From contig NZ_JAAIIJ010000021.1 of the NCBI RefSeq assembly GCF_012932445.1, forward strand, positions 1-64,000: a DNA stretch of 64,000 bases, read 5' to 3'. The translations under genes and the position numbers were made by a program. The notes beneath the pieces are model-generated. The model was not told where the DNA came from, ran no database searches, and worked only from the letters and a program-made list of their open reading frames with translations. The stretch is from Bifidobacterium panos. GTDB lineage: Bacteria; Actinomycetota; Actinomycetes; Actinomycetales; Bifidobacteriaceae. This document shows positions 925 to 64,000 of the stretch, piece by piece; within the stretch, counting starts at the first letter, position 1; each line of letters opens with the position of its first letter.

Positions 925-1085
925 ACACCACAATGCGACGCAGCAGTTCAATGGCGACGATATTCTCATACGCGCGCCCATAGTCAAGGTTGCGCGTGCC
1001 CAGTTTGGCGTAACGGAACGCATGGTCGCACAGGTAATACTTGTCCCCGGACGCAAGATATTTCCTGTGAGTTTCATCGCCTCTT
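925..1085 (-). pseudogene. Remnant of an AAA/DUF4143 ATPase
   Basis: Read on the minus strand, the fragment gives KYLASGDKYYLCDHAFRYAK, then LGTRNLDYGRAYEN and IVAIELLRR. This is the centre of the DUF4143 domain, including the conserved YEN(I/V)VA..EL motif found in the complete genes of this window. No Walker motifs remain, and the sequence runs without a natural end into the antitoxin gene. The fragment most resembles the subfamily of the gene at 34827-36125. Like that gene it sits downstream of a palindrome (1094-1134), so the palindrome may be its former operator. Confidence 0.7.
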
Positions 1086-1093
1086 CCGTACTT

Positions 1094-1134
1094 CTATTAC
1101 GCAAAAATGAAAAATATTGATTTCTGCGTAATAG
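1094..1134. promoter_or_regulatory. Palindrome CTATTACGCA/TGCGTAATAG
   Basis: Two perfectly complementary 10-base arms (1094-1103 and 1125-1134) enclose a 21-base AT-rich loop. It lies just upstream, in the minus direction, of the AAA/DUF4143 remnant. Its position and style match the 44-bp palindrome upstream of the intact gene at 34827-36125. A role as operator is inferred. Confidence 0.5.
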
Positions 1135-1322
1135 GATAACTCGATTCGAAGGCTTCCGCGAGAGACACCGGACTGGGATGGCGGGATGCACACTGAGAAC
1201 GCAATGTTCGAGCACTGTGACTCGGGACGCGCTGGGAACGACTTTGCTGCGTTGGCGGGATGGTGCGGAGGGCACGGGATTGGCTGGTTACCGTCAAACG
1301 GCGCCGTCGGTTACGGGCGAAA

Positions 1323-1345
1323 CGAAGAGCCCACTGGGCTCTTCG
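1323..1345 (-). terminator. Perfect 10-bp hairpin CGAAGAGCCC/GGGCTCTTCG
   Basis: The hairpin has perfect 10-base arms and a 3-base loop, 60 bases past the stop of the minus-strand surface-protein gene. There is only a weak T-run on the minus strand. The same hairpin occurs at 21480-21502, and a compensated variant at 31365-31387. It may act as a terminator or be part of the dispersed repeat family. The surrounding 1140-1404 has no gene I can support. Confidence 0.45.
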
Positions 1346-1404
1346 TCCCGCGAAATGATGAGGAACGAGGCCGGCCGTGTCAAAGGCCGGGCCCCAATCC
1401 TCGA

Positions 1405-61552: not shown

Positions 61553-61597
61553 TTACTACTCAGATGGGCATAGAAACTAGCCGGCGAAGGAGCAACA

Positions 61598-62953
61598 GTG
61601 AGCTATATGGAGCGTAAACTGGCCGCGGAAATCGTCGCATGGGCGCAATCAGACGACACGCACCCGCTGATCATCCGAGGTGCCCGCCGCACCGGGAAAA
61701 CATACCTAATCGAGCATCTCGGGCACAATTTGTTCCGAGACGATGTGGTCAAACTGGACTTCCAAACCGATCTCGCCACCATCGAGAAAATCTTCGACGT
61801 GCCCACCAACAAGACCGATGCCATCATCCAGCGCATCAGCGAATATTCCGGCGCGACCATCACCCCCAAGCGCACGCTTATCTTCCTCGATGAGATTCAG
61901 TTGAGCGAAAAGGCCCTGAACTCGCTGCGCTTCTTCTCCGGGACGGACTGGCGCATCATAGCCACAGGCAGCCTCTTGGGTGTGACCGTCAAAAACCGCA
62001 GTCTCCCTTTCCCTTCGGGCGTGCGGCAACTCGATCTGCGGCCGCTTGATTTCGAGGAATTTCTTTGGGCGGTGGACGAGAAACCTCTTGCCGACGCGAT
62101 TCGCGAACACGCCTCGCAACCTTCGTCGTTCATCCTGCATGACAAGGCGCTGGATCTTTTTCACCGTTTCCTGACAATCGGGGGAATGCCGAAAGCGGTC
62201 GACGCCTACCGCTCGACACACTCATTCACGCACGTTGCCGAAGAGTTGCGCGAGATCGACGACACCTACATCAACGACATGACCGACCCCGACAACGGCA
62301 TTAGCGGCGTGTCCGCCAAAAGAATATGGGACAGCTTGCCGAAACAGCTGCTCAGATCGTCCACCAAGAAATTCAAATACGCCGACGTGATCCGCGGAGG
62401 AAGGCGCGAGCGGCTGATGGAACCTCTTGAATGGCTCGAAGCAGCCGGGCTCGTCCTGCGCAACGACATGACCCGAGACACAACCGCGCCATTGAGCCCC
62501 TACCGCGACGAGGAGGGCAGTTTCTTCAAAATCTACATGGCCGACACCGGCCTGATGTTCCGCAAATTCGGCATAGCCGCCGAAGTGTTCCTCAACCCGG
62601 ACGTCGCCGCGGCCCTTTCCGCTGATTTCCGCGGGGCACTCGCCGAGAATTTCATGATGCAGTCGCTCACGGCCAGCGGTCTGCACACCTTCTATTGGAC
62701 CCCGTCGCAAGGTTCGGGCGAACTGGACTTCGTCTTCCAGAATCAGCTCGCGCAAACCATCGCGGTCGAGGTGAAATCCGCCCGCAACGTAACCTCCAAG
62801 ACGCTGGCGCGATTCGCCAAAGAAAGCCGCTGCCCGATCGCATACCGACTCTCCGAACGCGACTTCGGCACCAGCCAGATAGCCGGAACCAGCACGCAAC
62901 TGCACAGTCTGCCGCTCTACGCAGCCTTCGCCATTGCAAACACGCAATCTTAG
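61598..62953 (+). CDS. AAA/DUF4143 ATPase, GARRTGK subfamily
   Basis: This 451-residue protein has Walker A GARRTGKTY near residues 28-36, Walker B LIFLDEIQLSE near 97-107, and sensor IIATGSLLGV near 125. The DUF4143 half includes FRGALAENFMMQSL and ends with GELDFVFQ...AVEVKSAR. It uses a GTG start at 61598 behind AAGGAGCAACA. It clusters with the genes at 10019 and 19446, and like them is preceded by repeats spaced 33 bases. It lies between two other regulator/ATPase genes on the same strand. Confidence 0.85.
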   Translation: MSYMERKLAAEIVAWAQSDDTHPLIIRGARRTGKTYLIEHLGHNLFRDDVVKLDFQTDLATIEKIFDVPTNKTDAIIQRISEYSGATITPKRTLIFLDEIQLSEKALNSLRFFSGTDWRIIATGSLLGVTVKNRSLPFPSGVRQLDLRPLDFEEFLWAVDEKPLADAIREHASQPSSFILHDKALDLFHRFLTIGGMPKAVDAYRSTHSFTHVAEELREIDDTYINDMTDPDNGISGVSAKRIWDSLPKQLLRSSTKKFKYADVIRGGRRERLMEPLEWLEAAGLVLRNDMTRDTTAPLSPYRDEEGSFFKIYMADTGLMFRKFGIAAEVFLNPDVAAALSADFRGALAENFMMQSLTASGLHTFYWTPSQGSGELDFVFQNQLAQTIAVEVKSARNVTSKTLARFAKESRCPIAYRLSERDFGTSQIAGTSTQLHSLPLYAAFAIANTQS

Positions 62954-63003
62954 GAAGCCCCGATAGAACTAGCCACTTGCGTGGATATAATACTTGTCAG
63001 TAT

Positions 63004-63019
63004 AATACTCATGAGTATT
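63004..63019. promoter_or_regulatory. Perfect palindrome AATACTCATGAGTATT
   Basis: This 16-base perfect palindrome lies 19 bases before the start of the last ATPase gene. TATAATACT occurs just upstream twice (62986 and 63001 regions), so palindrome and promoter overlap. It is a probable self-repression operator. Confidence 0.6.
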
Positions 63020-63038
63020 AAGGCGATAGGAAGTCGGG

Positions 63039-64000
63039 ATGTTCGTCGGCAGATCCAAGGAATTGCAAGTCCTCAACGACATGTGGGAACGCAGCAGTTA
63101 CCAGATGATGGTGCTGCTTGGCCGGCGTCGCGTGGGGAAAACGGCGCTTCTGGATGAGTTCTCGAAAGACAAGCGCACGCTGTATTTCACTGCGCGCCAG
63201 CAAACGCCAGCAAATAACCTGCGTGATTTTTCGCGCGCGGTGTATGGTTTTTTCAATTTCCCGGAAAGCACCCCGCCGTTTGCCACATGGCAAGACGCCC
63301 TCGACTTCATCGTCAGCAAAGTGCAGGGGGAAGGCGAGCGCTTCCTGTTCGTATTCGACGAGTTTCCCTATGCGGCAATAAGCGACAACTCGTTGCCCTC
63401 CGTGCTGCAGATCGCCATTGACCACGGCTTCAAAAACACCAACAGCATGCTGGTGCTGTGCGGCAGCAACGAGGGATTCATGGAAAGCGAAGTGCTCGGC
63501 TATAAAAGTCCGCTATACGGCCGACGCACGGGGCAGATCAGGCTCAAACCATTCGATGTGTTCGACACCGCGCGCATGCTTGACTTTGCCGGCGCACAGG
63601 ATGTGATCAAATATTACGCGACATTCGGCGGAACCCCGTACTATTTGCAGCAAATCCAAGCGGACAGGAGCTATGAGCGGAACGTGACCGATCTGCTGTT
63701 CAATACCAGCGGTCTGCTGTATGAAGAGCCGCTGATGCTGCTGCGACAGGAACTGCGCGATCCCACAGTATATGGTTCCGTGATGGAAGCCGTGGGCGGC
63801 GGCGCCACCAAGCAGAACAAAATCGCGGATCGAGCCGGAATCACCCCCGTCACCAGTACCAGCAAGTACCTCAAAGTGCTCGAAGATTTGGGACTGCTTG
63901 AACGTCAGGTGCCGCTGGGAGACAACCCGGCCCGTTCGCGCAAAGGACTATGGAAGGTCAAGGATCCGTTTTTTGCGTTCTGGTATCGATTCGTCAGCCC
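63039..64000 (+). CDS. Archaeal-type ATPase with DUF234-like end (cut by window)
   Basis: The first 320 residues are visible and the gene continues past the window. It starts MFVGRSKELQVLNDMWE, with Walker A LLGRRRVGKTALL near residues 24-36, Walker B FLFVFDEFPYA near 103-113, and sensor MLVLCGSNEGFM near 135. A winged-helix segment (KIADRAGITPVTSTSKYLKV) then leads into the DUF234 motif WKVKDPFFAFWYRFV. This family is related to, but distinct from, the DUF4143 group. ATG 63039 is close behind AGGAAGTCGGG. The function is unknown. Confidence 0.85.
   Translation, partial: MFVGRSKELQVLNDMWERSSYQMMVLLGRRRVGKTALLDEFSKDKRTLYFTARQQTPANNLRDFSRAVYGFFNFPESTPPFATWQDALDFIVSKVQGEGERFLFVFDEFPYAAISDNSLPSVLQIAIDHGFKNTNSMLVLCGSNEGFMESEVLGYKSPLYGRRTGQIRLKPFDVFDTARMLDFAGAQDVIKYYATFGGTPYYLQQIQADRSYERNVTDLLFNTSGLLYEEPLMLLRQELRDPTVYGSVMEAVGGGATKQNKIADRAGITPVTSTSKYLKVLEDLGLLERQVPLGDNPARSRKGLWKVKDPFFAFWYRFVS

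What the first reader, a model, noticed from the sequence alone, without database searches (positions are those of the whole stretch)
925..64000. A dense set of AAA/DUF4143 ATPases, each with its own promoter repeat type that follows protein subfamily
Seven complete genes (10019, 11766, 19446, 34827, 36314, 48261, 61598), one related ATPase cut by the window edge (63039) and one remnant (925) occur in 64 kb. Each has a distinct repeat 20-80 bases upstream of its start. The WCGKT proteins (11766, 36314) have 23-bp direct repeats, as does 48261. The GAR(Q/R)xGK proteins (10019, 19446, 61598) have units spaced 33 bp. The RRCGKT type (34827) and the related remnant have a single large palindrome. 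The repeat sequences are unrelated between loci, so each protein probably recognises its own sequence. DUF4143 ATPases have no agreed function. A protein-plus-private-DNA-address system (self-regulation, plasmid-like incompatibility, or defence with self-recognition) would explain the pattern.
Basis: partly seen in the sequence, partly recalled or inferred. Interest (0 to 1): 0.9.

Follow-up and report, generated by a model that had tools for sequence, protein, structure and literature searches.

The report
Nuclease genes with private promoter arrays
A bifidobacterial genome holds 45 copies of a gene family that others list as a candidate anti-virus system, and most copies have their own set of short DNA repeats at the start of the gene, spaced by a distance that follows the protein's family tree; each predicted ATPase-nuclease likely binds its own repeats and would so control itself.

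Summary
The genome has 45 DUF4143 matches, 44 in ORFs with a P-loop. Of 151 genes from this and sampled congeneric genomes, 129 have an upstream tandem array scoring above all 302 shuffles. Period follows the protein clade: on a tree, 118 genes with a 23-type or 33-type period need 2 changes, against 35-45 in ten shuffles. Both periods recur in other phyla, 33 bp also in one archaeon. The cousin family DUF234 (window gene 63039) mostly has 15 bp. Three of four motifs tested genome-wide lie almost only at their own gene or pair; the fourth, tested more loosely, has chance-like extras. The protein is a predicted AAA ATPase, winged helix and PD-(D/E)XK nuclease. Best reading: each likely binds its own array and regulates itself; binding and the sign of regulation are untested. 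The family is already listed as candidate defence PDC-S01; I found no report of the arrays.

The parts
10019..11341 (-). DUF4143 ATPase, class A (D13, GARQVGKS)
11366..11500 (-). its array, 33-bp period, four units around CTCTATAATGTTACAA
13064..13206 (-). second D13-type array beyond the 3' end of 11766, with similar flank
11766..13037 (+). DUF4143 ATPase, class B2 (D18, GAKWCGKT)
11613..11723 (+). its array, five 23-bp units GCCAACTRCYGTAGTGAAAATTG
9896..9975 (+). second D18-type array beyond the 3' end of 10019, with similar flank
19446..20765 (+). DUF4143 ATPase, class A (D12, GARQTGKT)
19306..19372 (+). its array, two 33-bp units
34827..36125 (-). DUF4143 ATPase, class C (D36, GTRRCGKT), predicted dead nuclease (QSA in place of ExK)
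36146..36191 (.). palindrome upstream of 34827, arms of 21 bp
36314..37615 (+). DUF4143 ATPase, class B2 (D23, GPKWCGKT)
36213..36277 (+). its array, three 23-bp units around ATTCGAAAAAGCTAG
34672..34772 (+). D23-type array at the left outer end of the pair, followed at 34785-34802 by an 18-bp match to the 3' end of D23 (by eye), probably a gene remnant
37687..37744 (+). D23-type array at the right outer end of the pair
48261..49454 (-). DUF4143 ATPase, class B1 (D05, GPRQSGKS); AAA about 1-135, winged helix about 187-260, PD-(D/E)XK about 262-388 (predicted)
49500..49786 (-). its array, twelve 23-bp units around CTAATGTANGATTRTGGA
61598..62953 (+). DUF4143 ATPase, class A (D29, GARRTGKT; ATG at 61607 also possible)
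61489..61552 (+). its array, two 33-bp palindromic units TGTACACGAAATT...GTGTACA
63039..63998 (+). ATPase_2/DUF234 cousin (PDC-S27), cut by the window edge
62986..63020 (+). its array, 15-bp period (score 12, just under the threshold of 13)
935..1063 (-). remnant of a class C protein (like D35), with stop codons upstream in frame
1094..1134 (.). palindrome beside the remnant, similar by eye to that of D35

Best explanation
Each of these genes encodes a predicted ATPase with a winged-helix domain and a PD-(D/E)XK nuclease domain, which likely binds the private repeat array lying at its own promoter, one subunit per unit in a fixed head-to-tail register, and would thereby turn down its own expression and hold the nuclease in check. 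Shown by sequence: the arrays, their position, their clade-specific period, the privacy of the motifs tested, the shared core per subfamily, the co-variation of unit and protein, and conserved nuclease residues in classes A and B. Inferred: that the protein itself binds; that the winged-helix recognition helix and the loop in front of the catalytic residues read bases; that the bound form is an oligomer with a subunit every 15, 23 or 33 bp; that the sign is repression. Further inference, weaker: release from the array (for example when an invader titrates or disturbs it) would raise expression and set the nuclease free, a single-gene defence switch.
For: Arrays: 129 of 151 genes over the highest of 302 shuffles. 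Period by clade: 118 genes at 22-24/46 or 32-34 bp need 2 changes on the tree; the ten shuffled counts shown were 35-45. Other phyla: class B1, 50 of 80 relatives have an array, 46 of these at 22/23/46 bp, in Actinomycetota, Fibrobacterota, Bacteroidota (Saprospiraceae), a Spirochaetales, a Clostridiales and three Patescibacteria MAGs; class A, 13 of 21 distinct ORFs from other families of the phylum, 12 at 32/33 (which counts one gene twice); three of four hand-picked plasmid relatives at 32/33 bp, one of them archaeal. Unit similarity follows protein identity on the same strand, not on the reverse complement: B1 rho 0.67 (26 genes), B2 0.56 (21), A 0.14 (59), each p 0.001. A class A gene of another family, 80% identical to D31, keeps its unit (AAGTTCTGCGCATCGTGC, 33 bp). 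Privacy: D05 motif 11 of 11 genome matches in its own array, D13 7 of 7 and D23 7 of 8 at their own gene pair; D16, with 3 mismatches allowed, 4 of 7 (reversed-pattern control 1). Position: array end within 40 bp of the start codon in 76 of 129. Structure: winged helix with HTH helices 210-216 and 221-233; the top three covarying pairs are residue 222 with unit base 6 and residues 314 and 316 with base 16.
Against: No binding or expression data. 22 of 151 genes have no array over the threshold, and 30 of 80 B1 relatives, largely Bacteroidota and Pseudomonadota, have none. Best -10-like hexamers lie inside arrays in 52 of 85 cases, no more than the 61% that coverage alone gives, so activation fits as well as repression. 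Up to 12 units is more than a repressor needs. Intact nuclease residues are unexplained by self-regulation alone. Residues without an obvious DNA contact (344, 386, 50) also rank high in covariation. The residue 316 rule held in 25 of 33 new loci (Fisher p 0.006), but only 3 independent contrasts exist on well-supported branches (about 2 concordant, 0 discordant), too few for significance.
Confidence: 0.6

Rival explanations
1. The array is a target or an exclusion address: the nuclease would cut or bar incoming DNA that carries the same array (plasmid-like incompatibility, homing or addiction), and the resident copy would be protected by its own bound protein.
For: Nuclease residues kept in 27 of 27 B1 genes and at least 70 of 80 class A genes by regular expression; covarying residues 314/316 sit just before the catalytic ExD, so the active-site loop may face the unit; many copies in one genome; relatives of 48261 occur on 375 plasmid records.
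Against: Class C (16 of 17 without ExK) keeps inverted repeats in 11 of 17 although its nuclease is predicted dead; exact-pattern scans for tandem B1 or D13-type units found none in the viral collection; arrays sit at the promoter, not scattered.
Confidence: 0.17
2. The arrays are activator sites or storage sites: the protein would activate its own promoter or be parked there in an inactive oligomer, with regulation secondary.
For: Arrays lie upstream of and up to the core promoter, and -10 overlap is no higher than chance; copy number 2-12 suits titration or storage.
Against: In 76 of 129 genes the array reaches within 40 bp of the start codon, where bound protein would block transcription.
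Confidence: 0.12
3. Another host DNA-binding factor binds the arrays and the DUF4143 protein does not.
For: No binding shown.
Against: Unit and period follow the protein tree, and genes of one genome have different units, which one or few host factors could hardly read.
Confidence: 0.05
4. Mobile-element ends or iteron origins: arrays would be transposition ends or replication iterons of integrated replicons.
For: AAA + winged helix resembles Orc1/Cdc6 in Foldseek hits; iteron-like layout upstream of the gene; arrays at the outer ends of two gene pairs.
Against: Only 3 of 39 genes with a unit have a unit match within 600 bp downstream, two of them one pair; outer arrays carry similar flanks and a probable gene remnant, as local duplications would (by eye).
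Confidence: 0.05
5. Chance or replication slippage without function.
For: Tandem repeats do arise by slippage.
Against: Copies differ more outside their best 14-mer than permuted columns allow (class A 0.215 against a permuted maximum of 0.144; B1 0.186 against 0.168; B2 0.152 against 0.150); cross-phylum period conservation.
Confidence: 0.01

Closest known systems
PDC-S01 (PADLOC candidate single-gene defence system; ATPase + PD-(D/E)XK)
   Same: All seven window DUF4143 proteins match its models, up to 603 bits; described as ATPase fused to a PD-(D/E)XK member and as the fourth most common defence across prokaryotes (passages of PMC12988326)
   Different: The passages read speak of abundance and phylogeny, not of promoter arrays; there experimental validation is called pending for most such candidates
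PDC-S27 (ATPase_2/DUF234)
   Same: Window gene 63039 matches at 183 bits; its relatives in the genus too have upstream arrays
   Different: Period mostly 15 bp rather than 23 or 33
RptR repressor of an E. coli defence island (PMC12255303; abstract and passages read)
   Same: Represses its own promoter through three direct repeats, two of them overlapping the -10 box
   Different: RptR is a small separate regulator with 9-bp repeats and one conserved site; here the predicted effector itself is the likely binder and members have different sites
Archaeal AAA+ ATPases PABY2304 (2QEN) and SSO1545 (2FNA)
   Different: The match does not cover the nuclease domain; no arrays of theirs were examined
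Iteron plasmid initiators (recalled)
   Same: DNA-binding protein with tandem 20-odd-bp repeats upstream of its gene
   Different: 44 copies spread over many contigs of one genome; no origin was looked for

Membership tests
AAA_14/DUF4143 ATPase | both Pfam domains above cut-off | tested here: met
   7 of 7 window genes
PDC-S01 | match to a PDC-S01 model | tested here: met
   7 of 7, best model 213-603 bits
PDC-S01 | lies in or beside defence loci | tested here: inconclusive
   nine window neighbours and 63039 by Pfam: transporters, metabolism, ClpB-like, LacI, one SLFN_AlbA_2 gene beside 61598; only part of the neighbours was scanned
PDC-S01 | antiviral activity | not testable with these tools
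   needs phage challenge
PD-(D/E)XK nuclease | fold | tested here: met
PD-(D/E)XK nuclease | catalytic E...ExD...ExK | tested here: met
   B1 27 of 27, B3 5 of 5, A at least 70 of 80, B2 at least 19 of 22 by regular expression, which mis-picked some rows
PD-(D/E)XK nuclease (class C only) | ExK | tested here: not met
   16 of 17 class C proteins have Q-x-[ASTC] or similar
Autoregulated operator system (RptR-like) | repeats overlap the own promoter | tested here: inconclusive
   array end within 40 bp of the start in 76 of 129, but -10 hexamers not enriched inside arrays and no start sites mapped
Autoregulated operator system (RptR-like) | protein binds repeats and represses | not testable with these tools
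   needs EMSA and reporter
Transposon or element with terminal repeats | repeat at both ends of the element | tested here: not met
   unit within 600 bp downstream in 3 of 39 genes
Iteron replicon | autonomous replication origin | not tested
   no origin analysis was made

The most novel reading that the evidence does not exclude
[quoted passage not shown] the assembly is the off-state of a nuclease that invaders set free, and private addresses let dozens of copies coexist in one genome without cross-talk.
Probability: 0.3. Interest if true: 0.92.

Novelty: new variant of a known kind. Interest (0 to 1): 0.8.

Why it matters
PDC-S01 is called the fourth most common defence across prokaryotes (passage), yet in the papers that I searched I found nothing on how it works. 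The arrays give each protein's likely DNA ligand by sequence alone, so binding, oligomer geometry, regulation and nuclease triggering become directly testable, with built-in specificity controls (44 paralogues in one genome, most with a different address). They also give a simple genomic signature for finding and sorting members.

Tried and rejected
Rejected: chance repeats (shuffles); repeats equally common elsewhere (window scan; genome-wide motif searches); mobile-element ends. Not supported: enrichment of -10 hexamers inside arrays (52 of 85 against 61% expected). Led nowhere: exact tandem B1 and D13 patterns in viral contigs (0); D05 relatives in viral contigs (0; D13 relatives do occur in 14 phage-collection records, not followed up); NCBIfam (0 for 7 proteins); PDB by sequence (0 for 48261); the Thermus gene TT_P0211, raised 6.6-fold in plasmid-bearing wild type (section 7 of PMC4406477 read), has only short palindromes upstream by eye. 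Covariation in class A looks clade-confounded. Papers: seven searches, on 'DUF4143', COG1373/PF13635/DUF234, 'PDC-S01', 'guilt-by-embedding', and wider terms; of the listed papers I opened six, in passages or sections, and saw no report of the arrays; preprints and most subscription journals are not held.

Rows dropped before counts: of the 94 unfetched places outside the own genome listed, 92 were fetched (two odd frames left out); 13 of 119 relative loci gave no complete P-loop ORF; one locus (L152) holds two genes under one id, so one of them was overwritten; one search used 149 of 151 rows (the other loss is one over-long protein); of 72 B1 arrays 69 had distinct proteins, 5 were left out before MI and 7, for odd phase or a broken protein, D03 of this genome among them; 19 of 95 for uncertain phase; of 65 new loci, 33 were counted (16 already known, 13 without ORF, 2 without array, 1 other lag). 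In one search, 21 of 24 loci from other families gave an ORF. In one search, 21 ORFs came from 30 loci. One search listed only the best matches, so weak (mostly class C) genes of other species are under-sampled.
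Full report
Setting. The window is G000:C14:1-64000 of a 1.89-Mb, 44-contig genome, 74% complete. The genus is most likely Bifidobacterium: one congeneric genome has a contig of the same length (594,907 bases) as a Bifidobacterium colobi record. 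PF13635 (DUF4143) has 45 matches in the genome; 44 lie in ORFs with a P-loop and one (D45) is a fragment. In 30 other species of the genus the count is 0 to 19, so this genome is extreme.

The arrays in this genome. I scanned the upstream DNA of all 45. A tree of the 44 proteins has three groups: A (P-loop GAR[QR]xGK and near variants, 18 rows), B (GPRQSGK = B1, KWCGK = B2, GARAVGK = B3, and D07; 13 rows) and C (RR[CS]GK, 13 rows). Group A units mostly recur every 32-34 bp, group B every 23 bp (D07 has none), group C mostly has palindromes, some repeated every 40 bp. Four own genes pass neither the direct nor the inverted threshold: D07, D32, D42, D44. In many arrays the spacers between units differ while a core and the spacing stay (for example D10, D16, D19). 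The contrast between the best 14-mer and the rest exceeds permuted columns in each of three classes (the margin is small in B1 and B2).

Wide sample. From I fetched 92 of the 94 further places listed and, with the loci, obtained 107 genes of other species. Of all 151, arrays scoring above 13, the highest of 302 dinucleotide-preserving shuffles, occur in B1 27 of 27 (26 at 23 or 46 bp), B2 22 of 22 (21 at 23 or 46), B3 5 of 5 (4 at 23), A 66 of 80 (60 at 32-34) and C 9 of 17 (4 at 40; 11 of 17 have inverted repeats) (classes by P-loop motif). Two of the C values (D36 at 23, D38 at 32) are the array of a divergent neighbour. On a tree of 149 proteins, the 118 genes with a 23-type or 33-type period need 2 changes; the ten shuffles shown gave 35-45. 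Five genes with an A-like P-loop and a 22/23-bp period (L048, L049, L050, L069, L070) can therefore hardly stand among the 33-bp genes on the tree.

Beyond the genus. For B1, 80 relatives from named records (some of them other Bifidobacterium species) were examined: 50 have an array, 46 of them at 22, 23 or 46 bp, in Actinomycetota, Fibrobacterota, Saprospiraceae, a Spirochaetales MAG, a Clostridiales MAG and three Patescibacteria MAGs; 30 have none, largely Bacteroidota and Pseudomonadota. For A, 21 distinct ORFs from other families of the phylum gave 13 arrays, 12 at 32 or 33 bp, and 5 more had inverted repeats only (the call's own totals of 22 and 14 count one gene, lag 42, twice). Four plasmid relatives that I picked by hand gave 33 bp in Glaesserella, 32 bp in Vibrio, 33 bp in the archaeon Haloferax larsenii (beside a cas3 gene), and in Bacteroides fragilis nothing over the threshold, though by eye two matching units lie about 66 bp apart. 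For the cousin family ATPase_2/DUF234 (PDC-S27), 21 genus ORFs gave 11 arrays, 9 at 15 bp, and 15 with inverted repeats; of five hand-picked plasmid relatives one (Rhizobium) shows 15 bp, a Bacteroides one a weak 16 bp under the threshold, a haloarchaeon an 18-bp block far upstream, the other two nothing.

Units follow proteins. Within B1, B2 and A, unit similarity on the same strand rises with protein identity (Mantel-type permutation p 0.001 each; rho 0.67, 0.56, 0.14), with no such rise on the reverse complement (0.15, -0.37, -0.02). B1 units from 69 loci align to CTAcT-n4-GATTATgg; A units share a core a-A-t-a-a-TGT (information 9.2 bits against 6.0-6.2 scrambled), B2 13.6 against 7.4-7.9.

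Privacy. In the whole genome the D05 motif (up to 2 mismatches) matches 11 times, all in its own array; D13 7 times, all at its gene pair; D23 7 of 8 at its pair; D16 (3 mismatches allowed) 4 of 7 in its array, with 1 match of the reversed control pattern. In the window all 10 blocks with lag 23, 33 or 46 sit at DUF4143 genes and none of the 13 others does.

Which residues read the unit? Mutual information with average-product correction over 384 protein columns and 23 unit positions (64 B1 loci) ranks residue 222, at the start of the recognition helix, with base 6 first, then residues 314 and 316, just before catalytic E318, with base 16; residues without an obvious contact (344, 386, 50) follow. 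Lysine 316 goes with G16 in 32 of 36; glutamine or glycine never (0 of 23). I wrote down the prediction and tested 33 new loci: K with G 10 of 14, non-K with non-G 15 of 19, Fisher p 0.006. In 76 phase-certain loci 69 agree, but only 3 independent contrasts lie on well-supported branches, about 2 concordant and 0 discordant, which is too few. In B2 the second pair is the residue at the place of 314 (K342), on 21 loci and clade-confounded. I treat this as a lead to a contact, not as proof.

Promoter position. The 3' end of the array lies within 40 bp of the start codon in 76 of 129 genes (start codons chosen by rule). Bifidobacterium breve uses TATAAT/TTGACA promoters (passages of PMC5746004). 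-10-like hexamers are not enriched in arrays over coverage, so the sign of regulation is open. RptR, a repressor of a defence island acting through three direct repeats (abstract and passages of PMC12255303), is the nearest precedent for repression.

Outer arrays. The two divergent pairs of the window have extra arrays at their outer ends. By eye the copies include non-repeat flanks, and the left one of the 34827/36314 pair is followed by an 18-bp match to the 3' end of D23, so I read them as remnants of local duplications; 36 of 39 genes with a unit have no downstream copy within 600 bp.

Conclusion. A large, known, uncharacterised family has a private, clade-ruled operator-like array. Binding by the cognate protein is very likely, self-regulation likely, defence plausible. 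The family is known (PDC-S01); the array signature I did not find in the papers searched.

Noticed in passing
window 62986-63020 and L351-L380: The ATPase_2/DUF234 cousin family (PDC-S27) has its own upstream array, mostly with a 15-bp period and palindromic units (9 of 11 arrays in 21 ORFs).
   Followed up: yes
window 9896-9975, 13064-13206, 34672-34772, 37687-37744: Arrays bracket both divergent gene pairs; by eye they carry similar flanks, and one is followed by a piece of the D23 3' end.
   Followed up: partly
G000, all contigs: 45 DUF4143 genes in 1.89 Mb, against 0-19 in 30 other species of the genus.
   Followed up: partly
class C genes (D32-D44, for example window 34827-36125): Nuclease ExK replaced by Q-x-[ASTC] or similar in 16 of 17: a predicted dead-nuclease branch; D36 and D38 are divergently paired with a class B or A gene.
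   Followed up: partly
33 bp against 23 bp periods: The two main periods differ by 10 bp, about one helical turn. Class A proteins (about 440 aa) are longer than B1 (about 390), but B2 (about 423-433) is close to A, so length alone does not set the period.
   Followed up: no
L350 (Haloferax larsenii plasmid): An archaeal relative with a 33-bp palindromic array lies beside a cas3 gene.
   Followed up: no
window 59707-59858: Further direct repeats (lags 21 and 41) at and just upstream of the start of a SLFN_AlbA_2 gene at 59794.
   Followed up: no
window 21683-30433: A 2916-codon ORF (-) overlapping a 3114-codon ORF (+), with internal repeats; not examined.
   Followed up: no
phage collection: 14 unannotated faecal phage records hold a relative of 10019; their upstream DNA was not read.
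   Followed up: no
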